Shown here: positions 1 through 23,406 of the stretch, in pieces | Position numbering within the stretch: position 1 is the stretch's first letter | Layout: every line of letters begins with the position of its first letter | Source: Myxococcales bacterium | GTDB taxonomy: Bacteria; Myxococcota_A; Polyangia; GCA-2747355 | Length of the DNA: 34,752 nt | NCBI GenBank assembly: GCA_020431405.1 | Contig: JAGQIK010000688.1 | Span: 1 to 34,752, forward strand | Direction: 5' to 3' | Notes under the pieces: model-generated | Told to the model about the DNA's origin: nothing | The model's database searches: none | The model's input: only the letters and a program-made list of their open reading frames with translations | Position numbers and translations under genes: made by a program

Positions 1-3000
1 CGCCGCCTCGTCGCCATCGGCACGCGGCGCCCGCGCGAGCTCCACCAGCGCCTCGATGGCCGCCGCCAGCTGCCGCGCCTCCTCGGAGCGCAGAAAGCCC
101 GCCAACACGTCCACGGTGCGCGCGTCGCCGCGCCGCGCCAGCGCCACGGCCGCCTTCATGCGCAGATCCTCGTGGTCGCTCTCGAGCGCGCGCCCCAGCG
201 CCGCCGCCACGCGCTCGTCGCGCGCGTCGATCAGACGATCGACCACGGCGAGCCGCACGTCGGCCTGGCTGCACTCGAGCGCCAGCAGCCACGGCTCGAG
301 GCTGCCCTGCTCGTAGAGGCGCGGCAGCCGCTCGAGCGCGTAGCGACGCACCTCGGCGCTCGGCGCCTCGAGCGCGCCCTTGACCAGCGCCGACGCGCGC
401 TGCTGCGTCGCATCGCTTTGGCTCTGCGCCGCGGCCAGCAGCTCGTCGACGGCACCACGCCCCACATCGGCTGCCTCGGCCTCGAGCGCGAGCGCCAGCG
501 GCTCGAGCGAGTCGGCCTCGTAGAGCTCGCGCAGCGCGGCGAGCGCCGCCTTTCGCACCAGGTGGTTGGGGTCGCTCAGCGCGCGCCGGATCACCGGCAG
601 CACCGCGTCACGGCCGACGGCCCCGTCGGCGCCCAGCACCGCCAGCCGCGCCAGCGCGTCGCGTCGCACACGATGGGTCTCGTCGGCGTCGCCCGACGGC
701 GGCGCCTGTCGCACCAGCCCAGCGAATGTGCCGAAGACGAGGCGCTTGCCCCCCGCGCCGACCAGCGAGTCGTCGCCCTGCCCCGCGTCCGCCGCGGCGC
801 TGAGCACGCCGATAGCCGCCAGCGCTCGCAGCGTGCCCGACGACTCGGCCCCGCGCGCAGCCGCCGGCGCCGTAGCCGCCGCGGACCTGCCGGCGCCGAA
901 GATGCGGCGCACCCAGTCGCGCTTGCGCGGCGCGCGCGCCTCGCCGTCTTCCCAGTTGGTGTGCGGCACCCAGCGCGCCTCGCCGGACGGACCGCGCAGC
1001 CTCGCCGCCTCGCGGAAGTACGCCAGCGGCTGACCGCGCAGCGCCAGCACTTGCGCCGCCGCGTAGCGCAGCGCCGGATGGTCGCTGGCCAGCGCGCTGA
1101 CGACGACGTTGCGCAGCGCCGCCTGCTCGCTCTCCTGCGGCCAGTCCTTCATGTCGCTGACGCGCTCGAGCTTCTGCGGGCCGACCAGCTCGCTGGCCCA
1201 TACCCCGAGCTCCTCCGCGCCCGCGGTCCCGTCGGCCGCCGCGATGCGCGCCTCGAGCGCGCGCGCCGCCGCGAAGCGGATCTCCGGATGCGCCGACGAG
1301 AGCGCCGAGAGCAGCAGATCGGGCGCCAGACCGGCTCGCGCCAGCGCCACGTCGCGCGCGACGATCACGGCAAAGACCAGATCCTGGATCTCGCGATCGG
1401 CATCTTCGAGCCCTTGTAGGATGCCGCGCACCCCGTCGGGTCCCAGAGCGACGAAGCTGAGCAGCGCGCCGATGCGGATCGGCCGGTGCTCGTGTCGCTG
1501 CGTGCCGGCCAGCACCGGGATGGCGCGCGGGTCGCCGAGCTTGGCCAACCCTTCGGCGGCCCAGCTGCGCACGGCCAGATCGCCGTGAGACAGCGCATCG
1601 ACTAGCGGCTGCTCTTCGCCGGGACGACACGCCGTCGCCAGGCCGCGGCCGCCCATCTCGCGCACGGTGCTGTCCTCGTCGTCGAGCAGCGCGACATAGA
1701 ACGTGATCGCCGCCGGGTCGCCGACATCGGCGACGGCGCGCGCGGCGCGCTGGCGCAGCGCGTCCGACGGGCGATTGATATCGCTCTTGGGCAGCGTGAG
1801 CAGCTTCTTCATCGGCTCGACGGCGCGCCGGTCGCGCCGCTTGCCGCAAAGCTCGCCGGCGCGTACGCGCAGCTCGTAGAAGATGCTCGAGAAGGCGAGC
1901 GCGAAGGCCTGCTGGTCGTCGGGCAGCAGCTTGTCGATGGCCTCGATGGCGGCGATGAAGACTTCGCCGTGCTCTTCGTCGAGCAGCTCCACGAGCCGCT
2001 TGCGCAGCGCCGCCGCGTCGGACTCGACACAGCCCTTGGCGCCCGCCGCGCGCACGCTGGGGCGCGGCGAGCTCATCGCGGAAAGGTGCGGCTCGGGCCT
2101 CTTGGCGTCGCCCTTGTTCTTCGTCGCCGCTTTGTAGGCGGCGAGCCCTACGTCAGCGCTGGCGTCGGCGCACAGCGACAGCAACAGCTCGCGCGCCCAG
2201 CCCTCCTTGCGGCTCTCCAGATCGCCGACCACCTTGCGCCGGATGTCGGCGTGACGCGAGGCCGCGGCGCGCTCGAGCGCCACGCGGATGTCCTTGCTAT
2301 GCCACGTCTTGAGCGTCGCGAGCGCTTTGGCGCGCACCTGCGCCGCCTCGTCGTCGAGCGCGTCGCCGAGCAGCGCGTCGGCGCGCGCGTGAAGCGACGT
2401 CGCCTTGGCGTGCTCGCCGTCGCCGCCGAACTTGACCAGCAGCGACAGCCCCGAGACGCGCGTGTCATCGAAGCCGCCGCGCAGCGCGAGCGCGCCGAGC
2501 TCGAGCTCTCCACGCGCGCCGTCGGGCTTGGCCAGCTCCGCGAGCGCTTCGAAGGCCGTGTGGCGCACCGTGGCATCCGCGTCGTCGAGCAGCCACGAGA
2601 GCCGCGTCACCACGCGATCGTCGCCCGGCATGCGCTTGGCGGCGCATGTCAGCGCCTCGACCACGTAGCGCCGCATCGCCGCGTCGGGCTCTCGGCTGAG
2701 CTGCAGCAGCGCGCCCACCGCGCGGCTGTCGCCGAGCAGCGCCAGACAGCGCGCACCACGAAGCGCCGTGTCGGCGCTGCGCGAGGCGATGGCGGCAAAC
2801 AGCGGCTCGAGGTCGGCGTCGTTGATGGTGTCGGCGGGCTGCTTGCTCGTGAAGGCGCCGCGCTTCTCGAGCTCGGCGAGCGCCTTGGCGGTGTGCTGAT
2901 CGGCCGCCTTGAGCCGCGCCGACAGCGACGCGCGCGTGGCCAGCGAGACGAGAAACGCCACGCTGCGCACCTTGTCGTCGGCGTCGTCGAGCGCGCCTTC

Positions 3001-4653
3001 GAGCAGCCGATCGACGGCCGCGCGATCCGATGCCGCGGACGACTGCTCCGCGGCCAACGAGGACGCGCTCTCGGCGCCGAGGCCCAGGCGCGTGACCGCC
3101 TCGGCGCGCACGTCTTCCGGTCCGCGCGCCAGCGCGACGCGGATCGGCTCGAGCGACTGCGGCGGCTCGAGCTCGCTGAGCGCGTCGAGCGCCGCGGCGC
3201 GCACGCGCTTGTGGTCGTCGCGCAGCCGGTCGGCGATGAGCCCTGGCACCAGCGGCGAGACGTCGCGCAGCGCCGGCAGCCGCTTGACCGCCTCGAGGCG
3301 GATACCTTCGTGCTTGCTGCCGAGCGCCGCCTTGAGCGCGGCCAGCGGCGCGTCCTTCTCGATGGCGAGCAGCGCCTCGAAGGCCGCGCGACGTGTATCG
3401 ACATCGCCGTCGTCGAGCGCCGTACGCAGCGCGGGGCGGCTCAGCCGCCGTCCACCGGCGCCGATGTGCTTGGCCGCCAGCCGCCGGATCTCGGGCTTCT
3501 TGTCGCTGCTCAGCGCGCGGTCGAGCAGCACGCGCGCGGCGTCTTCGGGCAGCTCGGAGAGCGCCTTGACCGCCGCCTCGCGCACCTCGTCCTTGGAAGC
3601 GCGCAGATCCTCGGCGAGGCGAGCTAGCTCCGAGAGCAACGTCTCGGGCGACGCCAGCTCCGCCGTCTCGCTGACCTGGTAGAGGTGCAGCTGGCGCTTG
3701 TCGTCGATGACCGCCAGCGTGCCGCCGCGCTTGTCGGCCTTGGCGCGCGGCGAGCCGGACAGCAGCGCCGCGCCGCGAAGCAGAGACGAGACCTCGGTGG
3801 TGCGCGGCTTGCGCCGGCTGTCGAGCTGCCAGGCCTTGACCGTGCCGTCCTCGCTCACCGACAAAAGGCGCCGCTCGAGCTCGCGGTCGGCCTTGTCGGT
3901 CAGACGCGCGCTGTAGATCAACGCGCGCACGGCGGCGCTGTGGGCCGCGTCGCCCGATCGGTTCTCTTCGTCGACGGCACCCTCGAGAAAGCAGACGCGG
4001 ATCGAGCCGTCACCGCAGCCGGCCACCACGCGCCCGTCGCCGGGGAAGCACAGCGCGCCGATGCCACCCTCGCCACACGGCATCTCGCGCACCGCGGCGC
4101 CTTCGAAACCTTGCTCGCTGTCGAGCGGCACGCTTCGGATCACGCCGTCGTCGCCGGCCGCCGCGACGTAGCGGCCGTCGGGATCGATCGCCACCGCGCG
4201 CAGCGGCCGCGACGAGAGCTTGCGCGTGCCCGCCGACTCGATGCCGCCTGCGAGCTGGTAGAGCCGCAGCACGCCGTCCTCGCCGGCCGTCGCGACGAGA
4301 TCCGACGACGACGCGTCGCCCTCGTCGCGCGTGCGGCACGCGATGGCCAGCACCGCGCCCTCGTGCGCGCCCTCGCCACGAAAGCGGCGCGATGGCTCCT
4401 CGCCCTGCGCGTCGTAGCCGGTTAGCGCGCCGTCGCTTCCGCCGACGATCAGCAGGTCGCCAGCGAAGGCCAGCGCGCTCGCAGCCGAGCGCAGCTCGAT
4501 CGACACCGGGCTCCACTTGGGCGCTGACAACAGATGAACGCGCGAGGTCTCGACGGCGTCGCTGTCGCGATAGCCGCCGATGGCGACGAGACGCCCGCTG
4601 CCGGAGGCGGCGACGGCGGCGAGCTGCTCTACGTGAGGGCCGAACTTTGTCAT
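1..4653 (-). CDS. WD40 and HEAT-repeat giant scaffold protein (3' end outside window)
   Basis: Reading the minus strand from the ATG at 4653 gives 1551 codons with no stop before the window edge, so the C-terminus is missing. Residues 1 to about 325 look like a WD40-type beta-propeller: blades end in motifs such as AGEDGVLRLYQL (near 121), GCGDGSIRVCFL (near 211) and SVSEDGTVKAW (near 261). From about 330 on, the protein is a long run of HEAT/PBS-lyase-like helical repeats (for example GDPRAIPVL, DEDSTVREMG, DPNHLVRKAALAALREL). A basic, less regular insert lies near residues 1208-1262. No enzyme motif was seen; both repeat types are protein-binding scaffolds, so a scaffold role is inferred. 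The start ATG overlaps the stop of the upstream gene by four bases (ATGA), implying translational coupling. No signal peptide is visible, so it is probably cytoplasmic. The partner bound is unknown. Confidence 0.85.
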   Translation of the reverse strand, partial: MTKFGPHVEQLAAVAASGSGRLVAIGGYRDSDAVETSRVHLLSAPKWSPVSIELRSAASALAFAGDLLIVGGSDGALTGYDAQGEEPSRRFRGEGAHEGAVLAIACRTRDEGDASSSDLVATAGEDGVLRLYQLAGGIESAGTRKLSSRPLRAVAIDPDGRYVAAAGDDGVIRSVPLDSEQGFEGAAVREMPCGEGGIGALCFPGDGRVVAGCGDGSIRVCFLEGAVDEENRSGDAAHSAAVRALIYSARLTDKADRELERRLLSVSEDGTVKAWQLDSRRKPRTTEVSSLLRGAALLSGSPRAKADKRGGTLAVIDDKRQLHLYQVSETAELASPETLLSELARLAEDLRASKDEVREAAVKALSELPEDAARVLLDRALSSDKKPEIRRLAAKHIGAGGRRLSRPALRTALDDGDVDTRRAAFEALLAIEKDAPLAALKAALGSKHEGIRLEAVKRLPALRDVSPLVPGLIADRLRDDHKRVRAAALDALSELEPPQSLEPIRVALARGPEDVRAEAVTRLGLGAESASSLAAEQSSAASDRAAVDRLLEGALDDADDKVRSVAFLVSLATRASLSARLKAADQHTAKALAELEKRGAFTSKQPADTINDADLEPLFAAIASRSADTALRGARCLALLGDSRAVGALLQLSREPDAAMRRYVVEALTCAAKRMPGDDRVVTRLSWLLDDADATVRHTAFEALAELAKPDGARGELELGALALRGGFDDTRVSGLSLLVKFGGDGEHAKATSLHARADALLGDALDDEAAQVRAKALATLKTWHSKDIRVALERAAASRHADIRRKVVGDLESRKEGWARELLLSLCADASADVGLAAYKAATKNKGDAKRPEPHLSAMSSPRPSVRAAGAKGCVESDAAALRKRLVELLDEEHGEVFIAAIEAIDKLLPDDQQAFALAFSSIFYELRVRAGELCGKRRDRRAVEPMKKLLTLPKSDINRPSDALRQRAARAVADVGDPAAITFYVALLDDEDSTVREMGGRGLATACRPGEEQPLVDALSHGDLAVRSWAAEGLAKLGDPRAIPVLAGTQRHEHRPIRIGALLSFVALGPDGVRGILQGLEDADREIQDLVFAVIVARDVALARAGLAPDLLLSALSSAHPEIRFAAARALEARIAAADGTAGAEELGVWASELVGPQKLERVSDMKDWPQESEQAALRNVVVSALASDHPALRYAAAQVLALRGQPLAYFREAARLRGPSGEARWVPHTNWEDGEARAPRKRDWVRRIFGAGRSAAATAPAAARGAESSGTLRALAAIGVLSAAADAGQGDDSLVGAGGKRLVFGTFAGLVRQAPPSGDADETHRVRRDALARLAVLGADGAVGRDAVLPVIRRALSDPNHLVRKAALAALRELYEADSLEPLALALEAEAADVGRGAVDELLAAAQSQSDATQQRASALVKGALEAPSAEVRRYALERLPRLYEQGSLEPWLLALECSQADVRLAVVDRLIDARDERVAAALGRALESDHEDLRMKAAVALARRGDARTVDVLAGFLRSEEARQLAAAIEALVELARAPRADGDEAA

Positions 4654-7481
4654 CTGTTTGCTAGCTCCCCATCGCGCGCGCGCGGCGTTCCTTCACGCAC
4701 GAACCCGGCGGGCAACGTCGTCTCGATGCCCGGATGCGCGGCGCGGATCGACGCCAGCGCGGCCACGCAGCTCTGCCACTCGCCCTTGGCCTGCGACGTC
4801 ATGAACTCTTCGAGCACCGGCAAGGCCAGCACCGCGAAGTCGCGCTCTTCGATCGACATCGCGCGCACCACCTCGAGCAGCCGCCGCTTGGCCACGCTCG
4901 AAGGCAGCGGCCGATCGGGCAGCGCGTCGCCGGCCACCTCGCGCCGCTCCATGCGCCCTGGCGGCAAGCCGAACATCACCGAGCGCAGAAAGCCGCGCAG
5001 CGCCTCGACGCTACGCTCGTCGCCGGTCAGCGTGGCGCCGCTGTGGCCCGCGAAGCCCTCGCCCTTTTTCGGCGACCACTCGTCAGCGCCACCGAGCGGG
5101 CGGTGCTTGTCCCACAACAGCCGCACCGCGAAGAGCCGCACCTCGCGGTCGGGGCTCTCCATCAACCACGCCAGCCGCGCTGCGCCGCCGACGTCGGCGT
5201 AGTGGCGGCGGATCAGGGTCAGCGCCACCTCGCGCGTGGCCTTGGTCGAGCTCTCGGCCATGCCAAACAGCGCGTCGGCGTCGAGCCAGTCGGCCGGCGG
5301 CACCTTCTTCGGGTCCGCGTCCTCGTCACCGAGCTTGAGCAGCACGCCGAAGGCCACGCCGCGCGTCTCGCGATAGACGCTGTCGGCGAGGCGATACGGC
5401 AGCCGCTTGTCGCCCCAGCGCACCAGCTCCTCGGCAGCGATGGCCGCGCCGAGCCTTCGCACGTCGGCACGCTTGTCGCCGAGCAGCGGCTCGACGCGCG
5501 CCAGCGTGTAAGCGCTTCGCGCGAGCGCCGGCTTGATGCCCAGCGAGCGCGCCTCGCGCAGCGTCGGGCCGAGCTCGGGGTGGTGGTAGCGCAGATACGC
5601 CGAGGCGAACGTGCGCACCGCCTCGGGCTCGTCGCGCCCGCCAGCGAGGCCCCACAGCCGCTCGATGCCAGCCTCGGCATCGCCCGAGTCGTGGAAGTCC
5701 GAAGGCGAGAAGTTCTCGAGCAGGTAGCGATGGGCGAACGTGCTCAACGACTCGTCGGCCTGACGCGCCATCGCCAAGAGCCATGGCAAGCCGATCGTCT
5801 TGGGCTCGACGAGCTTGCGATCGCCGAGCACGGCCAGCGCGTCGCCGCGCAGCTGCGGGCGCATGGTCAGCCCCTTGAGCCACTCGACGTCGAGGTCTGC
5901 GCCCTTGAGCTTGCCCGCCTTGAGCCAAGACCACGCGTCGCGCGCCACGCGGGAGTCGAGCACGGCGCGCTTGAACCACGCCTGACCGATCTCGGCGCCG
6001 TCGCGCTTCTTGAGCGCTCCGACGGCCAGCTTGCGCGCTTGATAATCGCAGCGATCGTCCTCGAGCAGCTTGCAAAGGTACTTGGCGGGGACCTTGGCCT
6101 TTTTTTCCGAATAGAGCTTCGCGATGAAATCGCGCTGCTCGCGCTCGCCGAGGGCCAGATCGACGTAGAGCTGCTCGTCGACGTCGGCCGGCGTCAGCGC
6201 GGCGGCGAGCTTCTTGCGCGCCATCTCGCTGGCGGCGCTCACGCCGAGCAGGCGCGCCAGCATCTTGATGCCGATGTCACCCGCCGCGCGGCGCTCGAGC
6301 TGGGCCACCGCCAGCTCGCGAACCTCCTTGGCCCCTTCGTCGGCGAGCTTGACCAGGCGCTCGATGTCGATCTCGCCGCCGTGCGCCTTGGCGTAGTCGA
6401 TGGCGAACTTGCGCGCCTTAGCGCTCGGCGAGAGCAAAAAGTCGAGCGCCATCTCGCCCAGGCCCTGCGCCGCGAGCTTCGACGGATGAAGCTCGGGCCG
6501 CGACTCGCACAGCTTGACCACGAACTCGTGCACGGAGCCGAAGGCGCGGCGCGCCACGCGCGCGATCCACTCCACGTCGACTTTCTCGAGCGCGCTGGGA
6601 AAGTCCTTCTCGAGGCTGCGGATGGCGAAGTCGCAGACCTTGTCGTTGCGCGCGTCCTCGAGCAGCCGCAGCAGCGGGTCGGCCGAGGTCTTCCAGGCCT
6701 CGTCGAAGGCGCGCTTCTTGAGCTCCTTGGGCGGCCCGTCGACGTATGCCGTCGTCTCGCCGCGCAGGTTCTCGTGCGCCCAGATGTGCGCGCTCAGCCA
6801 GCTGCCGGTGAAGTTGAACGACGGCGGATAGTGACGCAGCACCTCGACGGCGAACTGCGGATACAGCTCGGGCAACGCCTGGCCGAGGTGGCGCAGATAA
6901 CGCCAGGCGCGCCGCTGCATGTAGATCAAGGTGCCCATTTGCACCTCGTCGCGAATGCGCGCTGGCCCGCCGCCCATCTGCAGCTCGTCGAGCCGATAGG
7001 CGAGCACGCCGAACATCGCCGCGTCGTGGCGCTCTTCGGCGCGCTTGTAGATCTGCTTGAGCGCCTTCCAGAGGCCCCAGCCGACGCGCCCGCGACGAAC
7101 GATGGCCATCAGCGCGGCGCGCCCCTGCTCGGCGCCGCTGTCGTAGAGCTCGATCAGCACGTCGCCGAGCAGAAGCCGCGGCGGCGGGTGGTCGGTGGCG
7201 AGCAGCGACTGCCACGACTCGCGGCGCGCGACCTTGCGCTCGGTGGCGGTCTTGGCGGCCAGCGCCCCCGGGTTGATCGTGCTCTTGAGCCGCTGCAGCG
7301 TCCAGTCGTCGCGCCCCGGCGCGGGCGGCGCGTCGGCCGGATCCTCGGGCGGCTCTTCGGGCTGACCCGGCGCCGGGTCCGGCTGCTCGAGAAAACGCAC
7401 CACGAGATCCGCCAGCTGCGGATCCGCGTCACGAACGGCGCGCTTGATATCGGAGAAGGTGACTTCGCGCTCGGACGCCAT
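4650..7481 (-). CDS. Large HEAT-like helical repeat protein
   Basis: A 943-residue protein. I chose the ATG at 7481 because GAGGG lies six bases upstream; a GTG at 7514 would add 11 residues but has no such site. After a short helical head (MASEREVTFSDIKRAV) comes a Pro/Glu/Asp-rich linker (about residues 33-57), then long alpha-helical repeats with HEAT-like patterns (AREVALTLIRRHYADVG, DREVRLFAVRLLW). There is no Walker motif, catalytic signature, signal peptide or membrane segment. It is first in a two-gene operon with the WD40-HEAT protein (ATGA overlap), so the two probably act together. The pair is divergent from a RadA-like ATPase and a DNA ligase. Function is not recognised. HEAT plus beta-propeller pairs do occur as scaffolds in multi-gene NTP-dependent conflict systems, but no MoxR or vWA gene is present in this window to support that. 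Confidence 0.85.
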   Translation of the reverse strand: MASEREVTFSDIKRAVRDADPQLADLVVRFLEQPDPAPGQPEEPPEDPADAPPAPGRDDWTLQRLKSTINPGALAAKTATERKVARRESWQSLLATDHPPPRLLLGDVLIELYDSGAEQGRAALMAIVRRGRVGWGLWKALKQIYKRAEERHDAAMFGVLAYRLDELQMGGGPARIRDEVQMGTLIYMQRRAWRYLRHLGQALPELYPQFAVEVLRHYPPSFNFTGSWLSAHIWAHENLRGETTAYVDGPPKELKKRAFDEAWKTSADPLLRLLEDARNDKVCDFAIRSLEKDFPSALEKVDVEWIARVARRAFGSVHEFVVKLCESRPELHPSKLAAQGLGEMALDFLLSPSAKARKFAIDYAKAHGGEIDIERLVKLADEGAKEVRELAVAQLERRAAGDIGIKMLARLLGVSAASEMARKKLAAALTPADVDEQLYVDLALGEREQRDFIAKLYSEKKAKVPAKYLCKLLEDDRCDYQARKLAVGALKKRDGAEIGQAWFKRAVLDSRVARDAWSWLKAGKLKGADLDVEWLKGLTMRPQLRGDALAVLGDRKLVEPKTIGLPWLLAMARQADESLSTFAHRYLLENFSPSDFHDSGDAEAGIERLWGLAGGRDEPEAVRTFASAYLRYHHPELGPTLREARSLGIKPALARSAYTLARVEPLLGDKRADVRRLGAAIAAEELVRWGDKRLPYRLADSVYRETRGVAFGVLLKLGDEDADPKKVPPADWLDADALFGMAESSTKATREVALTLIRRHYADVGGAARLAWLMESPDREVRLFAVRLLWDKHRPLGGADEWSPKKGEGFAGHSGATLTGDERSVEALRGFLRSVMFGLPPGRMERREVAGDALPDRPLPSSVAKRRLLEVVRAMSIEERDFAVLALPVLEEFMTSQAKGEWQSCVAALASIRAAHPGIETTLPAGFVREGTPRARDGELANR

Positions 7482-7587
7482 CAGAGTCCCTCGGCGGCAG
7501 ACGCACCACGACACTCGGAGCGCCCGCTACTAGAAAACGGACGTCCGCGCGCACGTTGCGATCGATGAAACGGCTAGGGAGAATCGC

Positions 7588-7617
7588 ACGCTACGCGCGC
7601 TGCGCTACGCGCGTCAA
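7588..7617 (-). promoter_or_regulatory. Weak candidate promoter for the HEAT operon
   Basis: On the minus strand TTGACG is followed after 18 bases by TAGCGT, about 105 bases upstream of the start at 7481. The -35 matches the housekeeping consensus well, the -10 poorly. The 233-bp divergent spacer (7482-7714) holds nothing else I recognise apart from a GATCT/AGATC inverted repeat near 7640. Confidence 0.2.
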
Positions 7618-7714
7618 GCCTGCTTCGGATCCACCCGGATCTAGGGGGAGATCTCACCGCGCTCGCCGCGTCGTCGCCGTGCTACGCTCGCGCTCCTACC
7701 GACGAGCGAGACCG

Positions 7715-8983
7715 ATGCCACCGAAAAAGAAAAAGACGAGCAAGAGCGCTGACGCCGAGGGCGCCGAGCAGCAGCAGCCCGGCATGATGCAGCCCGGCAT
7801 GATGCAGCCGAACATGATGCAGCCGAACATGATGCAGCCCGGCATGCAGCAGCCCGGCATGATGCAGCCCGGAATGCAGCAGCCCGGCATGATGCAGCCC
7901 GGCATGCAGCCCGGCATGATGCAGCCGGGAATGCAGCCCGGCATGATGCAGCCCGGCATGATGCAGCCCGGCATGATGCCGGGGATGATGCCCGCCGCCG
8001 GCGGCAACCCGATGTTCGCCATGATGCAGATGATGCAGATGATGATGGGCGGCGGCGGGATGCCCGGCGACCCCGCGGCGGCGCCCTTCGCGCGGCCGCA
8101 CACCGTCGACGACGACGACGCCGGCCTCGACGCCGAGATCATCCGCCCTGCGACCTTCGACGATTTGATCAAAGCGCAAGAAGGCGTGCCGCTCGGCTCG
8201 GTCTTCGATCTCCTGTGCCTCACCGACGACGGCCAGAACGCTCTCGGCGGCGTGCCGCAAGGCTGCACCATCGCCATCGCCGGCCCGCCCGGCGCCGGCA
8301 AGACGCGCACCGCGCTGGCGGGCCTCGCGCGCGTGGCGCTCAGCGGCGAGAAGGTGCTCTTTGTCGTTGCCGAGGAGGGCTTTCACGACGAGGAAGGCTC
8401 GGGCCGCGACGACCTCTGCTCGCGCATGGTCAAGATCGGCATGGCCGCCACCGGCCTCGACGAGAAGGCCTTCCGCGAGAAGGTGCTCGACAAGATCTAC
8501 GTGCTCGAGAGCCAGTACCACAAGAACCACACTTGGGATGACTTCATCACCAAGTACCGCTACCTCACCGAGCGCGAGGAGATCCGCTTCGTCATCATCG
8601 ACTCGCTCAACATGCTCGACCCGACCAAGAACCGCACCGCAGACCACCTCTCGGCGCTCAAGACCTACAACCACGAGATCGGCGTGACCTGCATCTGCAT
8701 CGGTCAGATCCGCGACACGGGTCAGCCCGCCGGCGGCGAGGCACTGCAGCACACCGCCGACGTGGTGTTTCTGATCGAGGAGATGTCGCTCGGCTCGAAG
8801 GAGATCGCCGCGCAGTGGGGCGGCAAATACCGCGACAAGATTCACGTCATCCGCGCGGTGAAGAGCGTCACTACGCCAACGTTTCAGCACCCGGTGCGCC
8901 TCGGCCGCGAGGAGACCACCGGCGCGCTGGTGGTGCACGAGTCGCAGCCGGAGGAGTTCGCCGTGCTGCCGCCGAAGGGCTAA
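7715..8983 (+). CDS. RadA/KaiC-like RecA-fold ATPase with PGMMQ-repeat N-terminus
   Basis: A 422-residue protein. The head is a lysine patch (MPPKKKKTSK), then a Pro-Gly-Met-Met-Gln repeat region (residues 21-93), then a Met/Gly-rich stretch, then a RecA-fold ATPase from about residue 145. Walker A is GPPGAGKT (190-197, Lys196). Walker B is FVIIDS with Asp296. The later segment GGEALQHTADVVFLIEE resembles the RadA/Sms core, but the RadA zinc finger, the KNRFG motif (here IRAVKSVTT) and the Lon-like C-terminal domain are absent. RadA and KaiC relatives are ATP-driven DNA motors or switches; the exact role here is not known. I prefer the ATG at 7715 to upstream in-frame starts because the basic head begins there. 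The DNA ligase gene follows 18 bases later, so the pair is probably one transcript working in DNA repair (inference). Confidence 0.85.
   Translation: MPPKKKKTSKSADAEGAEQQQPGMMQPGMMQPNMMQPNMMQPGMQQPGMMQPGMQQPGMMQPGMQPGMMQPGMQPGMMQPGMMQPGMMPGMMPAAGGNPMFAMMQMMQMMMGGGGMPGDPAAAPFARPHTVDDDDAGLDAEIIRPATFDDLIKAQEGVPLGSVFDLLCLTDDGQNALGGVPQGCTIAIAGPPGAGKTRTALAGLARVALSGEKVLFVVAEEGFHDEEGSGRDDLCSRMVKIGMAATGLDEKAFREKVLDKIYVLESQYHKNHTWDDFITKYRYLTEREEIRFVIIDSLNMLDPTKNRTADHLSALKTYNHEIGVTCICIGQIRDTGQPAGGEALQHTADVVFLIEEMSLGSKEIAAQWGGKYRDKIHVIRAVKSVTTPTFQHPVRLGREETTGALVVHESQPEEFAVLPPKG
7775..7993 (+). repeat. In-frame tandem repeat coding for PGM(M)Q units
   Basis: Units of 12 or 15 bases built on CAGCCCGGCATGATG recur about 15 times and code for PGMMQ, PNMMQ, PGMQ and PGMQQ variants. 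The copies are nearly identical in DNA, as expected for recent slippage-driven growth, so unit number may vary between strains. Confidence 0.9.
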
Positions 8984-9001
8984 GCGGAGCCGCGGCGCCC
9001 G

Positions 9002-10960
9002 ATGAAGACACAGCAGGGCATCAACTTCGTCGAGACGGCCGACGTGCGGCGCTGGCTGCGCGACTCGGGCAAGCTGCGCGACTACACGCGCCGCATCGGC
9101 CAGAGCCGTCTCGACGGCAACTACCTCGAGCAAGAGCTCGGGCTGCCACTGCACCTGCGCTTCGTCATCGAGCGCCTCTCCGACGCCGACCCCGAAGGCG
9201 AGGTCGAGCACGAGTACGTGCTCTCCTCGATCCCCTTCTACAGCCTCTGCACGGGGCTGTTCTTGCCGCTCTCGGGCATGCAGCCCGACAAGACCGCCTA
9301 CATCTTCGGCCTCGAGACGGACGCGCCGCCGATGGCTGCCGAACGCGAGCAGCTGCTGGCGACCTTCGTCGAAAAAGACGTCGGCCTCACGCTGGTGCAG
9401 AAGCTGGCCTGCATCCTCGGCGACCCGTTCCTCGGCCGCCCGAGCACGTTTCGCCGCGACAGCCTGGTGCGCCTGCTGCTGTCGATGGTGCTGCGCTCGC
9501 GCCGCGAGATGGTCGACCGGCTGACCATCGTCGGCGAGGTCGCCGTGCTGTTCGCCGAGAGCCGCCCCACGCTCAAGCAAGAGCCGCCGCTCACCGCCGC
9601 CGAGGTGCTCGAGACGCTGCGCCTGATGCCAGCCGAAAAGCGCCTCTTCAAGTTCGACATCCTGCGCTCGCTCTTCGACCGCTGCGGCAAGCTCGAAGCG
9701 TACTTCCTGGCGCGGCTGATCCTGCGCAAGGCAGGCTTCGGCTTCGACTACCAGGGGCCGCTGATCGCGCGCAAGCTCGCCGAGCACTTCGGCGCGCGCG
9801 AAGAGCAGGTCGCGCACGCGATGGCGCTCACCGACGCCTTCCACGTGGCGCGCATCCTCGCCGACGAAGGCCCCGAGGGGCTGCGCAAGGTGCAGCTGCA
9901 GCCGCTGGTGCCGGTGCGCCCGGCGCTCGCCACCGGCTCGGCGGCAGACGTCAAAAAGTACCCGGTGTGGGTCGAGCGCAAGTACGACGGCATTCGCCTG
10001 ATGCTGCACAAGTCCACCGACTCGCGCGGCGGCATCCTATGCGGCGCCTACACGCGAACCCGCGGCGACTGGCTCGAGCAGATCCCCGGCATCGACTACA
10101 CCATCAAGTCGCTGCCGTGCCGCAACTGCATCGTCGACGGCGAGCTCTACGGCACCGTGCTCGACGTCGATCGCGGCTCGCGTCCGGCCTCGGTCTACGA
10201 CGTCTTCGCCATGCTGCAGGGCGAGCGCCCCGGCGCGCCGCTCAATCTCAAGTTCGCGGCCTTCGATCTGATCTACCTCAACGGCGAGGACCTGACGCAG
10301 CTTCCGCTCTCCGAGCGCCGCCGCCGGCTGCAGATGCTGCTCGCGCCGACCGCGCAGATGCCGCTGCCGGTGCCGATCTCGCTGTCCGAAGGCCAGCTGG
10401 CCAAAGACAAAGACGACGTCAACCGCCTCTACCAGCACTTCAGACACCAAGGCTACGAAGGCATCATCGCCAAGGACCTCGACGGCCCGTACCTTTTGTC
10501 ATCGCGCGACCCGACGTGGCTCAAGCGCAAGCCGATGATCACCCTCGACCTGGTGGTCCTCGCCGCCGTCTTCGCCGTCACGACGAAAGAGCGCGCCGGC
10601 CTCTTCGGCAGCTACGTCATCGGCGCGCGCACCAAGGAGAACACCTTCGAGGACGTGGGCGACGTGGCCGGCGTCGACCGCGTGCGCGACGCCGAGATCC
10701 AGACCGAGATCATGCGCGAGGGGCTGATCACCGGCCGGCGTATCGAGCGGCAGAGCGCCTCGGGCGTGCGCCCGGGCCTCGAGCTCAAGCCGCACCTCGT
10801 CATCACCGTGCGCTTCGAGGGCATCACGCGCGACTATCAGACCCAGGTCCTGAGCCTGCGCGATCCCAAGCTGGTGCACATCCGTTCCGACAAGACGCCA
10901 CTCGAGGCGAGCACTGTCGATGACATCGAAGAGATCTTTCTGCGCCAGCGCGTTGGCTAG
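9002..10960 (+). CDS. ATP-dependent DNA ligase, ligase-I type with N-terminal DNA-binding domain
   Basis: A 652-residue protein that should seal nicks in duplex DNA using ATP. The adenylation motif is KYDGIR with Lys327 as the AMP-accepting lysine. Other nucleotidyltransferase motifs are visible: FAAFDLIYLNG, EGIIAKDL and WLKRKP. Residues about 130-310 match the all-helical DNA-binding domain of archaeal and eukaryotic ligase I (FDILRSLFDRCGKLEAYFLA), and an OB-fold domain follows the catalytic core up to about residue 645. The first 125 residues are extra and unrecognised. Bacterial ATP-dependent ligases are accessory repair enzymes beside the NAD-dependent LigA. It starts 18 bases after the RadA-like ATPase gene, with GGAG about 12 bases upstream of the ATG. 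The 3' end overlaps the next gene's ATG by 41 bases. There is no Ku, polymerase or nuclease domain, so it is not LigD. Confidence 0.93.
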   Translation: MKTQQGINFVETADVRRWLRDSGKLRDYTRRIGQSRLDGNYLEQELGLPLHLRFVIERLSDADPEGEVEHEYVLSSIPFYSLCTGLFLPLSGMQPDKTAYIFGLETDAPPMAAEREQLLATFVEKDVGLTLVQKLACILGDPFLGRPSTFRRDSLVRLLLSMVLRSRREMVDRLTIVGEVAVLFAESRPTLKQEPPLTAAEVLETLRLMPAEKRLFKFDILRSLFDRCGKLEAYFLARLILRKAGFGFDYQGPLIARKLAEHFGAREEQVAHAMALTDAFHVARILADEGPEGLRKVQLQPLVPVRPALATGSAADVKKYPVWVERKYDGIRLMLHKSTDSRGGILCGAYTRTRGDWLEQIPGIDYTIKSLPCRNCIVDGELYGTVLDVDRGSRPASVYDVFAMLQGERPGAPLNLKFAAFDLIYLNGEDLTQLPLSERRRRLQMLLAPTAQMPLPVPISLSEGQLAKDKDDVNRLYQHFRHQGYEGIIAKDLDGPYLLSSRDPTWLKRKPMITLDLVVLAAVFAVTTKERAGLFGSYVIGARTKENTFEDVGDVAGVDRVRDAEIQTEIMREGLITGRRIERQSASGVRPGLELKPHLVITVRFEGITRDYQTQVLSLRDPKLVHIRSDKTPLEASTVDDIEEIFLRQRVG

Positions 10961-11585: not shown

Positions 11586-12095
11586 CTACGGGTGCAGGAC
11601 GATCTTGCCGGCCGCCTGCACCGTCAGCGGCGCCGACAGCGCGACGCCGTTGGCCTTGAGGTCGAAGGCGAGGATCGCCAGGTACTCGTCCGCCGCGAGC
11701 GTGCCGGGTTTTTTTGCCGGCATGTACTTCATCACCCATTTCCCCACGTCGAGCGCCGTACGGAACTTGACCTGCCGCGCCTTGGCCGATGACGGCGGAT
11801 CGAGCGGCAGCGCCGACTTGCCCACCACGGCCGGTGCGCCGCCGCTGCCCTGGCCCGCGTTTCCGTGACAGCCAGCGCAGTATTGGCCATAGAGCTTCTG
11901 CCCACGTGCGATCTGCGCCGAGACGTCGCCCGCCCCGCCGCCAGCCGCGGCCACGGGCGTGCTGGCGCCGGCGCTGGTGCTGCCGGGCTTGCTGCAGCCC
12001 GCGGCGAGCGCGAGCAGCACGAGGGCAAACGAGACGTGTAGCAGACAGATTCGTCGCAGAAGACTTTTCGGCGACCAGCCAGTTCGGTATTCCAT
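11586..12095 (-). CDS. Lipid-anchored mono-haem c-type cytochrome
   Basis: A 169-residue protein starting at the ATG at 12095, with AAGGGAG about eight bases upstream; longer in-frame starts lack such a site. The signal peptide ends in the lipobox LALAAGC (Cys34). After an Ala/Gly/Ser linker there is one haem-binding motif, YCAGCHG (Cys73, Cys76, His77), with axial Met likely Met125 in KYMPAKKPG. This is a class I cytochrome c fold on the periplasmic side of a membrane, where it would carry electrons. No oxidase or dehydrogenase is adjacent. It is divergent from the ECF sigma factor gene, with 115 bases between the starts. A TGTAAC element on the minus strand at 12145-12150 could be a sigma-factor -35 for this gene too, though I do not see a good matching -10. 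Confidence 0.9.
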   Translation of the reverse strand: MEYRTGWSPKSLLRRICLLHVSFALVLLALAAGCSKPGSTSAGASTPVAAAGGGAGDVSAQIARGQKLYGQYCAGCHGNAGQGSGGAPAVVGKSALPLDPPSSAKARQVKFRTALDVGKWVMKYMPAKKPGTLAADEYLAILAFDLKANGVALSAPLTVQAAGKIVLHP

Positions 12096-12210: not shown

Positions 12211-12918
12211 ATGATCGGAGCGGCGGCAGTCCAGCGCGACTACGGAGCCATCGAGGACGCCGAGATCGTCGAGCGCGTGCGCGCTGGCGATCGCGAGCTC
12301 TTCGAGGTGTTGATGCGGCGCTACAACCAGCGCCTCTTTCGGGTGGCGCGGGCGGTGCTCGGCGACGACGCGCGCGCCGAGGAGGCGGTGCAAGAGGCCT
12401 ACCTGCGCGCCTACACGCAGCTCGCGCAGCTCGCCAGCGGCGCCGCGTTCGGCGCCTGGGTCACGCGCATCACCGTGCGCGAGGCCTGCACGCGCCGGCG
12501 CCGCGACGCGCGCGAGGCCAGCGTCGAGGCCGAGCGCGCCGAGCGCATCGCCGCCGACGCCGACGCGCCGATCCCGCTGCACCGCACCCTCGCTCGAGAC
12601 CCCGAGACGGCCGCAGCGCAGCGCCAGCTGAGGCAGGTGCTCGAAACGGCCATCGAGGAGCTGCCCGAAGGCGCGCGCGAGGTCTTCGTGCTGCGCGAGC
12701 TCGAGGAGCTCTCCAGCGCGGAGACCGCCGAGTGTCTGGGGATCACCGACTCGGCCGTTCGCGTGCGGCTTCACCGCGCGCGCGCGCACCTGCGGGCCGT
12801 CATCGAGCGCGAGATCGGCGTCGCCTGCAAGGACATCTTCGCCTTCGCCGGCGCCCGCTGCGACCGCATCGTGCGCGCCGTGCTGGCGATGATCGCCGCA
12901 GGCCCCCGCGCGCTCTAG
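12211..12918 (+). CDS. ECF-family RNA polymerase sigma factor
   Basis: A 235-residue sigma-70 family protein of the ECF class. Region 2 is at about residues 20-95 (FEVLMRRYNQRLFRVARAVL, then EEAVQEAYLRAY). Region 4 with its helix-turn-helix is at about 150-205 (LPEGAREVFVLRELEELS, then LGITDSAVRVRLHRARAHL). The C-terminal tail has the paired-cysteine pattern CKDIFAFAGARCDRIV, seen in a subset of ECF factors. The start is well supported by GGAGGAGG just upstream. No anti-sigma gene is next to it: the neighbours are a cytochrome lipoprotein and an amidohydrolase lipoprotein, so control may be by the tail cysteines or by a distant partner (inference). Likely targets are itself, the divergent cytochrome gene and perhaps the downstream amidohydrolase gene 40 bases away. 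Confidence 0.95.
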   Translation: MIGAAAVQRDYGAIEDAEIVERVRAGDRELFEVLMRRYNQRLFRVARAVLGDDARAEEAVQEAYLRAYTQLAQLASGAAFGAWVTRITVREACTRRRRDAREASVEAERAERIAADADAPIPLHRTLARDPETAAAQRQLRQVLETAIEELPEGAREVFVLRELEELSSAETAECLGITDSAVRVRLHRARAHLRAVIEREIGVACKDIFAFAGARCDRIVRAVLAMIAAGPRAL

Positions 12919-20223: not shown

Positions 20224-23200
20224 ATGTGCGCCGACCGAGGACTGCCGCCCTTGAGCCGCAAGCGTTCGCAATCGAAGAGCAAGAAGCCCAAGTCCACCAC
20301 GCGCGAGGTCAAGCCGACCCCCGCAGCCGACCGTACGAGCACGCCGAGCCGCGGCGAGCCTGCTGGACGTCGCACGCACGAGGTATTCGGCATCATCACG
20401 ATGGCCTCGGCGCTGCTCGTCGGGCCGAGCCTCGTCTCGGTGCAGTTCGGCAGCGGCGATCTGATGGGCCCCTTCGGGCGCACCGTCGGCCACGCCATCA
20501 ACTGGGCGCTCGGCATCGCCGGCTTCGTCGTGGTGGCGGCGCTGGTCGCCGTGGCGATCCGCATCTTCGCCGGGGCGCTGGGGCGCGGGGCCGCACCGCC
20601 GCCGCTCTACGCGCAGTGGCGCCAGCGCATCGCGCTGACCATGGCGCTCGTCTTCGGCGCGATCTTTCTGCATCTCGCCTTCCGCCCCGACCGGCTCGAC
20701 GGCGCGTCCTACGGCGGGTTGCTCGGAGAGGCGGCGGCCGAGCTGCTCTGTGCGCTGGTCTCGACGCCCGGCGCCTGGATCGTCTGTCTGGCTGGGCTGT
20801 CGCTCGCGCTGGTGCTCGGCACGCGCTTCTCGTGGGTGCGCAGCGCGCTGGCGGCGGCGAAGGCGAGCGGTCGCGCGCTCGCCGTGGTCGGCCGCTCGCT
20901 GGCGCGCGTGCCCGAGCGGCTGTCGGCGCTCGGCACCTTCGTGGCGCGTCAGATCGCGCAGAGCCGCCGCGAGGCGATCGCCACCAACCCCAACGGCACG
21001 GCGGCGATGCCGCCTGTGCTGCGTATCGATCTCGAGGCCGAGGCCGAGCGGCGCGGGCTGACGCGTGCCGAGAAGCGCGCCGCCAAGAAGGCGGCCAAGC
21101 GCGCAGCCAAAGAAGCGGCTGACAAGAGCGGGCCGCAGCCGATGCCGGCCGACCTCGAGATCGGCCGCCCTGCGGTGGCGCCGCCGATCATGTTGCCGCT
21201 GCCCGAGTCGATCGACGCGCCGCCCGTTGCTGCGCCTGCGCCTGTGTCTAGAAGCGACGCACCAGACGAGCCGACGCTCGACGAGGTCGTCGCCGCTGCC
21301 GACGACGACGTGATCATCGAGGCGCGCAGCGAGACGGCGCCAGCGAGCGACGCGGACGCGCGCCGGGCCGCGCCCAAGCGCGCCACGCCGCGCTCGCGCG
21401 CGCGCGATGATCAATCGACGCGCGCCGAAGACATCTTCGACGCCAGCGAGCTGATCATCGAGGCCATGCAAGCGATGGCCGAAGAGACCATCGCCGCCGA
21501 CGACGACGAGCCGCTCGACGCGCGACCTGACGAGGAGGACGTCGCAGACGTCGTCGCGGACATCGCGCACGGCGCGCGCGCGGACGCAGACAGCGACGAC
21601 GAGGGCGACGAGCTGACCATCGTGCAGTCGGACTTTCGCCGCGAGCTCGACGCTGGCGGCGAAGCGGCTGCAGAGGAACAAGCGGTGCGCGAGGCCGAGC
21701 GCGCCGGTTTCGTGCTCAACGGCGACAGCTACCGACCGCCGCCGCTTTCGCTGTTCGAGGTGCACGAGAGCGACCGCAGCGATATCGACCGCGAGGCGAT
21801 CTATACGCAGGCCGAGCGCCTGGCGCAGACCCTCGCCGACTACAAGATCTTCGGCAAGGTCACCAAGGTGCACCCCGGTCCGGTCGTCACGATGTACGAG
21901 TTCGTGCCGGCGCCGGGCACGCGCATCAGCAAGATCGCCAACCTCTCCAACGACCTCGCCATGTCGCTGGCCGCCAAGCGCGTGCGCATCGTGGCGCCGA
22001 TCCCAGGCAAGGGCGCGATCGGCATCGAGGTGCCCAACGCGCAGCGCGAGATGGTCTCGTTCAAAGAGATCGTCGCCGACCCCGCCTTCCGCAACCCGAA
22101 GTTCTCGCTGAGCATGGCGCTCGGCAAGAACATCTTCGGCGCGCCCGTGGCCGTCGACTTGGCCAAGATGCCGCACCTGCTCGTCGCCGGCGCCACCGGC
22201 GCGGGCAAGTCGGTCAGCGTCAACGCGATGATCTGCAGCCTGCTGGTGCGCTGCGCACCCGACCAGGTGCGCATGATCATGATCGACCCGAAGTTCCTCG
22301 AGCTGTCGGGCTACAACGACATCCCGCACCTGCTGCTTCCTGTGGTCACCGACCCGAAGCAGGCCAACACCGCGCTGCGCTGGGCGGTGGCCGAGATGGA
22401 GCGCCGCTACCAGCTGCTCGCCGAGATGCGCGTGCGCGACATCGCGTCGTTCAACCGCAAGGTGGACAAGCTGCGCGGCGAGGTGGTGGCCGAAGAGGCG
22501 CCCGCCGACGGGCTCGACCAGGCATCCATCGAGGAGTCGGCGCCGTCGAAGGTCACGGTGGTACGCAAGAACGCCGACGGCACCGAGGAGCATCTCGCGG
22601 GCGGCGAGCTTCTCGACGGCGCCGACGACGACGACAGCGAGAGCACGAGCATGGCGAACGCCGAGCAGATGCCGCTGGCGGGCGTCGACGGCGGCGCAGC
22701 CGGCGCGAGCCGCAGCAAGAAGCGCAAGAAGCGGCGCCTCGCGGACATCCCCGATCGCCTGCCTTACATCGTGGTCGTCATCGACGAGTTCGCCGACCTG
22801 ATGATGGTCGCCTCGAAGGAGGTCGAGACGTCGGTGGCGCGGCTGGCGCAGAAGGCGCGCGCCGCCGGCATACACGTGATCCTCGCCACGCAGCGCCCGT
22901 CGGTGGACGTCATCACGGGTCTGATCAAGGCCAACTTCCCCTCGCGCATCGCCTTCCAGGTCGCGTCGAGCCACGACTCGAAGACGATCCTCAACTCGCA
23001 TGGCGCCGAGAACCTGCTTGGCTCGGGCGACATGCTGGTGCTCGACCGCGGCACCGAGATGAAACGCGTGCACGGCGCGTACATCAGCGACGACGAGATC
23101 CAGGCCGTTATCGATCACCTCAAGTCGCAAGGCCGCCCCGTCTACGACATGGACATCCTCAAAGACGAGGACGCGGACGGCGATGGCGAAGGTGGGCTCG

Positions 23201-23406
23201 AGGACGCCGAGAAGGACGAGATGTACGACCGCGCGGTGCAGATCGTCGCCGAGAGCGGCAAGGTCTCGATCTCGATGATCCAGCGCAGGCTGCGCATCGG
23301 CTACAACCGCTCGGCGCGCATCGTGGAGATGATGGAGGCGCAGGGCATCGTCTCCGAGCCCGATGGTCCGCGCGGCCGCTCGGTGCTCATCGGCGACCCG
23401 CGCTGA
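20224..23406 (+). CDS. ftsK: FtsK/SpoIIIE-family DNA translocase
   Basis: A 1060-residue septal DNA pump that moves the chromosome during division. The basic head (1-50) is followed by four membrane segments (about 54-75, 92-117, 136-153, 165-200), an acidic, Ala/Asp-rich linker (about 300-500), the motor, and the C-terminal winged-helix gamma domain (about 990-1060). Walker A is GATGAGKS (656-663, Lys662). Walker B is VVVIDEFADLM with Asp854. These are 192 residues apart against about 124 in the Escherichia coli protein, because an insert rich in Asp, Glu and then Lys/Arg (SRSKKRKKRR) lies before Walker B. The ATG at 20224 has no ribosome site; a TTG at 20251 is an alternative start. It should act with XerCD at dif. 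Its last 87 bases are repeated downstream. Confidence 0.96.
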   Translation: MCADRGLPPLSRKRSQSKSKKPKSTTREVKPTPAADRTSTPSRGEPAGRRTHEVFGIITMASALLVGPSLVSVQFGSGDLMGPFGRTVGHAINWALGIAGFVVVAALVAVAIRIFAGALGRGAAPPPLYAQWRQRIALTMALVFGAIFLHLAFRPDRLDGASYGGLLGEAAAELLCALVSTPGAWIVCLAGLSLALVLGTRFSWVRSALAAAKASGRALAVVGRSLARVPERLSALGTFVARQIAQSRREAIATNPNGTAAMPPVLRIDLEAEAERRGLTRAEKRAAKKAAKRAAKEAADKSGPQPMPADLEIGRPAVAPPIMLPLPESIDAPPVAAPAPVSRSDAPDEPTLDEVVAAADDDVIIEARSETAPASDADARRAAPKRATPRSRARDDQSTRAEDIFDASELIIEAMQAMAEETIAADDDEPLDARPDEEDVADVVADIAHGARADADSDDEGDELTIVQSDFRRELDAGGEAAAEEQAVREAERAGFVLNGDSYRPPPLSLFEVHESDRSDIDREAIYTQAERLAQTLADYKIFGKVTKVHPGPVVTMYEFVPAPGTRISKIANLSNDLAMSLAAKRVRIVAPIPGKGAIGIEVPNAQREMVSFKEIVADPAFRNPKFSLSMALGKNIFGAPVAVDLAKMPHLLVAGATGAGKSVSVNAMICSLLVRCAPDQVRMIMIDPKFLELSGYNDIPHLLLPVVTDPKQANTALRWAVAEMERRYQLLAEMRVRDIASFNRKVDKLRGEVVAEEAPADGLDQASIEESAPSKVTVVRKNADGTEEHLAGGELLDGADDDDSESTSMANAEQMPLAGVDGGAAGASRSKKRKKRRLADIPDRLPYIVVVIDEFADLMMVASKEVETSVARLAQKARAAGIHVILATQRPSVDVITGLIKANFPSRIAFQVASSHDSKTILNSHGAENLLGSGDMLVLDRGTEMKRVHGAYISDDEIQAVIDHLKSQGRPVYDMDILKDEDADGDGEGGLEDAEKDEMYDRAVQIVAESGKVSISMIQRRLRIGYNRSARIVEMMEAQGIVSEPDGPRGRSVLIGDPR
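23320..23406 (+). repeat. 87-bp direct repeat, copy 1 (3' end of ftsK)
   Basis: This segment, from ATCGTGGAGATGATGGAGG to the ftsK stop codon, is identical base for base to 23522-23608. It codes for the end of the FtsK gamma domain. Confidence 0.95.

What the first reader, a model, noticed from the sequence alone, without database searches (positions are those of the whole stretch)
1..10960. Divergent scaffold plus DNA-repair locus: WD40-HEAT, HEAT-like, RadA-like ATPase, ATP ligase
Two overlapping scaffold genes and two adjacent DNA-enzyme genes diverge from one 233-bp spacer. I know of no described system with this exact set. It could be a repair or stress module in which the HEAT/WD40 proteins organise the ATPase and ligase, or part of a larger conflict system continuing to the left of the window.
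Basis: partly seen in the sequence, partly recalled or inferred. Interest (0 to 1): 0.62.

Follow-up and report, generated by a model that had tools for sequence, protein, structure and literature searches.

The report
Cut-off retron beside repair gene pair
The four genes are two unrelated units that happen to be neighbours: the broken front half of a known type of bacterial antiviral retron (type XIII), and a so far undescribed pair, a RecA-like motor protein and a DNA ligase, whose genes occur together in genomes of two distant phyla even when they are not neighbours.

Summary
The genes are there as described, but the four-gene module is not. It splits into two units.

Left: both 'scaffold' genes match PADLOC HEAT-ARM_XIII (E 8e-290, 2e-258), the accessory proteins of type XIII retrons. 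The contig ends inside the WD40-HEAT gene. The rest lies on contig C531 of the same genome: WD40-HEAT C-terminus, SWIM_XIII, a covarying msr-msd RNA, RT_XIII and a WGR protein. The two scaffold genes are adjacent in 20 of 20 other loci, never beside the ATPase or ligase.

Right: the RecA/KaiC-fold ATPase and the archaeal-like ATP-dependent ligase form their own pair. In 361 Myxococcota genomes both occur in the same 6. In 372 genomes of the phylum of a Planctomycetales MAG each occurs in 13, 12 shared. They co-occur though unlinked in at least nine genomes, their distances correlate (r = 0.90), and neither sits beside retron genes outside this window.

The retron is a known kind. I found no description of the ATPase-ligase pair; it is most likely a two-protein DNA-joining module, which is inferred, not shown.

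The parts
1..4653 (-). 5' part (1551 aa) of the WD40-HEAT accessory protein of a type XIII retron, cut by the contig end; its C-terminal part is on contig G000:C531 (L115:3-2033), with roughly 90-100 codons missing between the contigs
   Evidence: Pfam WD40 and HEAT_2; PADLOC HEAT-ARM_XIII PDLC02919, E 8.4e-290, profile 3-1340 of 1972; the G356 homologue aligns 85-1610 to the window part and 1707-2308 to L115
4650..7481 (-). 943-aa HEAT/ARM accessory protein of the type XIII retron, first gene of the operon
   Evidence: PADLOC HEAT-ARM_XIII PDLC02921, E 2.4e-258, 6-920 of the protein on 2-867/869 of the profile; adjacent to the WD40-HEAT gene in 20/20 homologous loci
7482..7714 (.). 233-bp divergent spacer between the two unrelated units; holds no msr-msd
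   Evidence: ncRNA model R1 finds nothing in the window; no Rfam match
7588..7617 (-). tentative promoter of the retron operon (TTGACG-17-GTAGCGT), weak evidence
   Evidence: read by eye from upstream regions of homologues, e.g. L089 TTGATC-17-CTAGCGT, position; the sigma-70 scan found no site
7715..8983 (+). RecA/KaiC-fold ATPase (422 aa); residues 1-138 are a Lys-rich then Met/Pro/Gly-rich low-complexity tail with a conserved NPMxxMMQMMQ segment
   Evidence: PF06745 KaiC 51.5 bits against cut-off 26.6; Walker A GPPGAGKT residue 190, Walker B IDSLN 295, GQIRDTG 330; Foldseek to RecA, KaiC, RAD51C/XRCC3 and PH0284
9002..10960 (+). ATP-dependent DNA ligase (652 aa), archaeal/Lig1-like three-domain architecture, 18 bp downstream of the ATPase gene
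   Evidence: DNA_ligase_A_N, A_M and A_C; nucleotidyl-transferase motifs KYDG 327, DGEL 379, AFDL 420, EGII 486, KRKP 508; best PDB matches are Thermococcus, Pyrococcus and Archaeoglobus ligases

Best explanation
The window joins two independent units by chance. (1) 1-7481 (-) is the front half of a type XIII retron, cut by the contig end. Shown by sequence: the operon order is HEAT-ARM (943 aa), WD40-HEAT (about 2.2 kaa), SWIM/winged-helix protein, msr-msd RNA, retron reverse transcriptase, WGR protein. Inferred from other retrons: the RT copies the msd hairpin into msDNA, the RT-msDNA-accessory complex stays inactive, and phage interference with it releases a defence response; the HEAT/WD40 proteins would be the sensing or effector scaffold. 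(2) 7715-10960 (+) is a two-gene module, a RecA/KaiC-fold ATPase and an archaeal/Lig1-like ATP-dependent ligase. Shown: genome-level co-occurrence in two phyla, linked or unlinked, correlated evolution, intact catalytic motifs. Inferred: the ATPase assembles on or remodels DNA ends or single strands and positions the ligase to seal them, in some lineages together with a PHP-type PolX that fills gaps.
For: Retron: PADLOC HEAT-ARM_XIII for both window proteins, SWIM_XIII and RT_XIII for the continuation on C531; RT motifs NARAH, YADD and VTG; msr-msd in the SWIM-RT gap, 41 of 61 consensus pairs with compensatory changes, RNA model finds it in 10 of 96 relatives; scaffold pair adjacent in 20/20 loci and followed by SWIM and RT where contigs allow. 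Pair: same 6 of 361 Myxococcota genomes, 7/7 ligase genomes have the ATPase; 12 shared of 13 and 13 in 372 genomes of the G382 phylum; Fisher 3e-13 and 1e-20, phylogeny not corrected; ATPase and ligase on different contigs or far apart in G371, G356, G226, G489, G433, G453, G471, G408, G664; distance correlation r = 0.90, Mantel p 2e-4; PHP-PolX next to the ATPase gene in G356, G371, G226 and G062. Independence.
Against: No expression or biochemical data. The type XIII retron also occurs in 5 of the 7 Myxococcota genomes with the ATPase-ligase pair (G000, G226, G356, G325, and G371), more than its background of about 10% (p 0.001 per genome, which counts 4 of 6; 0.07 per genus), so some functional link is not excluded. 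C515 and C531 do not overlap, so their join is inferred from homologues. The repair function rests on domain content.
Confidence: 0.88

Rival explanations
1. One functional locus: the retron accessory proteins and the ATPase-ligase pair act together, for example the pair repairs or processes msDNA or phage-broken DNA for the retron.
For: Divergent neighbours here; retron XIII is over-represented among Myxococcota genomes that carry the pair (4 of 6 in the common sample, p 0.001; G371 also has it).
Against: Never adjacent elsewhere; most retron XIII genomes (31 of 35) lack the ATPase; at genus level the enrichment is p 0.07 and large genomes carry more of everything.
Confidence: 0.06
2. The ATPase-ligase pair is a mobile or phage-derived replication/repair cassette rather than a host repair pathway.
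For: Patchy distribution; G000 groups with the Planctomycetales MAG G382 and G325 with G426 in both trees, as if the pair moved between phyla.
Against: ATPase absent from 50,697 phage and 72,556 plasmid records and not found in viral contigs with the patterns tried; ligase only distantly matched in phages; in L138 and L142 the pair sits beside a ribosomal-protein cluster, identified here only by reading the sequences.
Confidence: 0.12
3. The ligase is an ordinary LigB or LigD repair ligase and its ATPase neighbour is incidental.
For: Has the DNA_ligase_A_N domain of LigB-type enzymes; many bacteria carry ATP-dependent ligases.
Against: Co-occurs with this one ATPase family even when unlinked; scores 147 bits against a cut-off of 641 for PRK03180 and 121 against 228 for the NHEJ ligase model.
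Confidence: 0.06

Closest known systems
Type XIII retron (PADLOC-DB; retron typing of Mestre et al. 2020, cited in PMC12548924)
   Same: HEAT-ARM_XIII twice, SWIM_XIII, RT_XIII, msr-msd RNA, WGR-domain protein, in one operon
   Different: Nothing essential. Here it is split over two contigs. In relatives the msr-msd sits in the SWIM-RT gap, downstream of the RT, or upstream of the operon, and can be in 2-3 copies
LigB-type bacterial ATP-dependent ligases with the Lhr helicase / phosphoesterase operon (described in PMC10140301, citing Ejaz and Shuman 2018)
   Same: Three-domain ATP-dependent ligase with DNA_ligase_A_N in a bacterium, presumed repair role, paired with an ATP-driven DNA enzyme
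   Different: The partner is a RecA/KaiC-fold ATPase, not Lhr; sequence far below the LigB-type and archaeal LigA cut-offs; about 30% identity to other ligases of the phylum
KaiC/RadA-family ATPases of archaea (RadB, KaiC-like, PH0284)
   Same: Single RecA-fold ATPase with Walker A/B and a conserved GQ(I/K)DTGxPxGGEAL loop
   Different: No zinc finger or Lon-like domain of bacterial RadA/Sms; long Met/Pro/Gly N-terminal tail; below all equivalog cut-offs
NHEJ: Ku plus LigD
   Same: Possible end-joining with ligase and polymerase (PolX near the ATPase in some genomes)
   Different: No LigD polymerase or nuclease domain in the ligase; ligase below the LigD/NHEJ cut-offs; Ku not searched genome-wide

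Membership tests
Type XIII retron | HEAT-ARM_XIII accessory proteins | tested here: met
   8.4e-290 and 2.4e-258
Type XIII retron | RT_XIII reverse transcriptase with retron motifs (NAxxH, YADD, VTG) | tested here: met
   on C531 of the same genome: RT_XIII 4.6e-158, motifs
Type XIII retron | SWIM_XIII protein in the operon | tested here: met
   L115:2097-3908, 6.1e-148
Type XIII retron | WGR-domain protein | tested here: inconclusive
   L115:5692-6195 resembles the WGR protein of G191 (41% identity; PF05406 in G191) but does not reach PADLOC WGR_XIII
Type XIII retron | msr-msd ncRNA with long msd hairpin and conserved flanks | tested here: met
   L115:4065-4206, 133 bits; 41 of 61 pairs with compensatory changes; no convincing Rfam match
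Type XIII retron | All parts on one contiguous stretch | tested here: inconclusive
   C515 and C531 end in the same gene with about 90-100 codons missing between them; contiguous in relatives such as L157
Type XIII retron | msDNA production and anti-phage activity | not testable with these tools
   needs experiment
ATP-dependent DNA ligase (Lig1/LigB architecture) | A_N DNA-binding, adenylation and OB domains with KxDG and downstream motifs | tested here: met
LigB-Lhr repair operon | Lhr helicase and phosphoesterase genes next to the ligase | tested here: not met
   none among window neighbours scanned with Pfam; no gene except the ATPase is shared between ligase loci of different genera
LigD / NHEJ ligase | Score above the NHEJ ligase cut-off; Ku partner | tested here: not met
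   121 against 228 bits; Ku not searched genome-wide
Bacterial RadA/Sms | Equivalog score, N-terminal C4 zinc finger, Lon-like C-terminus | tested here: not met
   24 bits against 403; no Cys motif and no C-terminal domain in the alignment
KaiC/RecA superfamily ATPase | RecA fold with Walker A/B | tested here: met
   PF06745 51.5 against 26.6 bits; Foldseek probability 1.00 to KaiC and RecA (model confidence good only for residues of about 152-420)

The most novel reading that the evidence does not exclude
The RecA/KaiC-fold ATPase and the archaeal-like ligase form an undescribed, self-standing DNA-joining pathway of Myxococcota and Planctomycetota, in which the ATPase synapses or anneals DNA and delivers it to the ligase, with PHP-PolX as a gap filler in some lineages, and which is passed between phyla as a unit.
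Probability: 0.45. Interest if true: 0.62.

Novelty: new variant of a known kind. Interest (0 to 1): 0.5.

Why it matters
The retron part shows how a contig end can hide a known defence system as an unexplained 'scaffold' locus. It also yields a covarying RNA model of the type XIII msr-msd that finds further copies in relatives, useful for retron annotation and for single-stranded DNA tools. The ATPase-ligase pair, if it is what co-occurrence suggests, is a minimal two-protein DNA-joining module outside Ku-LigD and LigB-Lhr, and it can be tested directly with two purified proteins.

Tried and rejected
A msr-msd in the 233-bp spacer: rejected, no RNA model or Rfam match in the window, although in G325, G315 and G051 the ncRNA does lie upstream of the operon. 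Phage or plasmid origin of the ATPase: no match. PADLOC for the ATPase and ligase: no specific defence family. Rfam for the ncRNA: only sub-threshold noise. Literature: the library holds one passing mention of type XIII retrons and nothing I could find on the ATPase-ligase pair; the paper that defined the retron types is not held, so whether the type XIII ncRNA was drawn before is not verified. The structural model of the ligase has poor domain packing (pTM 0.47), so only fold-level statements are made from it. The single genome-contig scan found one relative.
Full report
OBSERVATION. The window is an entire contig (G000:C515, 34,752 b) of an 11.2-Mb, 733-contig genome with only three relatives held in its order. 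The WD40-HEAT frame is open at base 1, i.e. at the contig end.

THE FOUR GENES DO NOT TRAVEL TOGETHER. I searched Myxococcota genomes with each side. The 943-aa protein has relatives in 35 of 361 genomes. In all 20 loci I fetched, the gene after it is the WD40-HEAT gene, and none of the 20 has the ATPase or ligase. Conversely the close ligase family (58-65% identity, against about 30% for all other ligases) occurs in 7 of 379 genomes, and none of the ATPase or ligase loci outside the window holds a retron gene. Upstream neighbours of the scaffold pair are otherwise not shared, apart from a few two-locus cases.

LEFT UNIT: A TYPE XIII RETRON. In relatives the order is 943-aa protein, WD40-HEAT (2,100-2,370 aa), a protein of about 600 aa, an RVT_1 reverse transcriptase of about 440 aa and sometimes a WGR protein. 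PADLOC names them HEAT-ARM_XIII (both window proteins, 8.4e-290 and 2.4e-258), SWIM_XIII and RT_XIII. Searching the window's own genome with the RT found contig C531. It begins inside the WD40-HEAT gene and continues with SWIM_XIII, a 373-bp gap, RT_XIII and a WGR-like gene. Aligned to G356, the window part ends near residue 1610 and C531 begins near 1700, so roughly 90-100 codons are missing between the contigs. G291 shows the same kind of split, with its retron on two contigs.

THE RETRON RNA. The SWIM-RT gap of C531 folds into a retron-like msr-msd with outer inverted repeats and a long hairpin. The same element was recognised by its conserved flanks in the retron loci of further genomes, in the SWIM-RT gap, downstream of the RT, or upstream of the operon. 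On 12 aligned copies, 41 of 61 consensus pairs show compensatory changes. A covariance model finds it at 112-146 bits in the retron loci and not in the window. It also finds it in relatives that were not used to build it: G371, G291, G221, G368, G065 and G798. In G371, G291 and G798 it lies beside a type XIII RT. No convincing Rfam family matches. Several genomes carry two or three copies (G356, G325, G371, G368).

RIGHT UNIT: AN ATPASE-LIGASE PAIR. The ATPase has a RecA/KaiC fold with intact Walker motifs and an extremely conserved core, plus a low-complexity Met/Pro/Gly tail. The ligase has the full three-domain architecture and catalytic motifs and is nearest to archaeal and Lig1 enzymes. 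Both are far below the curated cut-offs of every named NCBIfam family tested.

CO-OCCURRENCE. In Myxococcota the ATPase is in 6 of 361 genomes, all with the ligase, and the seventh ligase genome also has it. In the phylum of a MAG titled 'Planctomycetales bacterium' (phylum identity taken from the record title only), the ATPase is in 13 and the ligase in 13 of 372 genomes, 12 shared. Of the two exceptions, G546's ligase starts 53 b from a contig end, where the ATPase would be expected, and G505 may be incomplete. The genes are directly adjacent in about half of the genomes but unlinked in at least nine. Fisher p is 3e-13 and 1e-20 without correction for phylogeny. Pairwise distances correlate, r = 0.90, Mantel p 2e-4, over 18 genomes, and both trees join G000 with G382 and G325 with G426, which suggests that the pair moved between phyla as a unit or that those MAGs are misassigned. 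Next to the ATPase gene in G356, G371, G226 and G062 there is a PHP-type DNA polymerase X. Function as a DNA-joining module is inference from domains and partners.

POSSIBLE LINK. The type XIII retron is over-represented among carriers of the pair in Myxococcota (4 of 6 in the common sample, p 0.001; genus level p 0.07), and G371 has it as well. I regard this as most likely an effect of large genomes and shared genera, but it is not excluded.

VERDICT. Observation right; four-gene module not supported; the 'conflict system continuing to the left' reading right for the scaffold pair. The retron is a member of a known type. The ATPase-ligase pair is, to my knowledge and in the library searched, undescribed; it is filed as a new variant of ATP-dependent repair-ligase systems until its function is tested.

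Noticed in passing
L102:9966-10416, L094:11797-12827, L157:12765-14953: Type XIII retrons with two or three copies of the msr-msd RNA, some downstream of the RT.
   Followed up: partly
L158:8299-8443 and 11588-11732, L160:9840-9984, L159:9380-9521: Copies of the same ncRNA with no type XIII gene within several kb; in L158 and L160 one lies beside the same small gene family (about 260 aa, YSRSQLLIIAEG). They may be orphan templates served by an RT in trans.
   Followed up: partly
L116 (G000:C550) and L117 (G000:C327): Two further retron-like RT loci in the same genome: L116 has RT_XIII, SWIM_XIII and WGR_XIII; L117 has an RT-like frame with unnamed neighbours.
   Followed up: partly
L119:10983-13130, L120, L121, L045:14683-16724: PHP-type DNA polymerase X next to the ATPase gene in four Myxococcota genomes of two families; in L045 its frame appears broken in two pieces.
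   Followed up: partly
window 7715-8130: Met/Pro/Gly-rich tail of the ATPase with GMMQP repeats, followed by a conserved NPMxxMMQMMQ segment present even in relatives with short tails.
   Followed up: partly
window 20224-23406: Complete FtsK/SpoIIIE DNA translocase gene; ordinary.
   Followed up: no
window 12211-12918: ECF-type sigma factor gene, followed by an amidohydrolase gene; ordinary.
   Followed up: no
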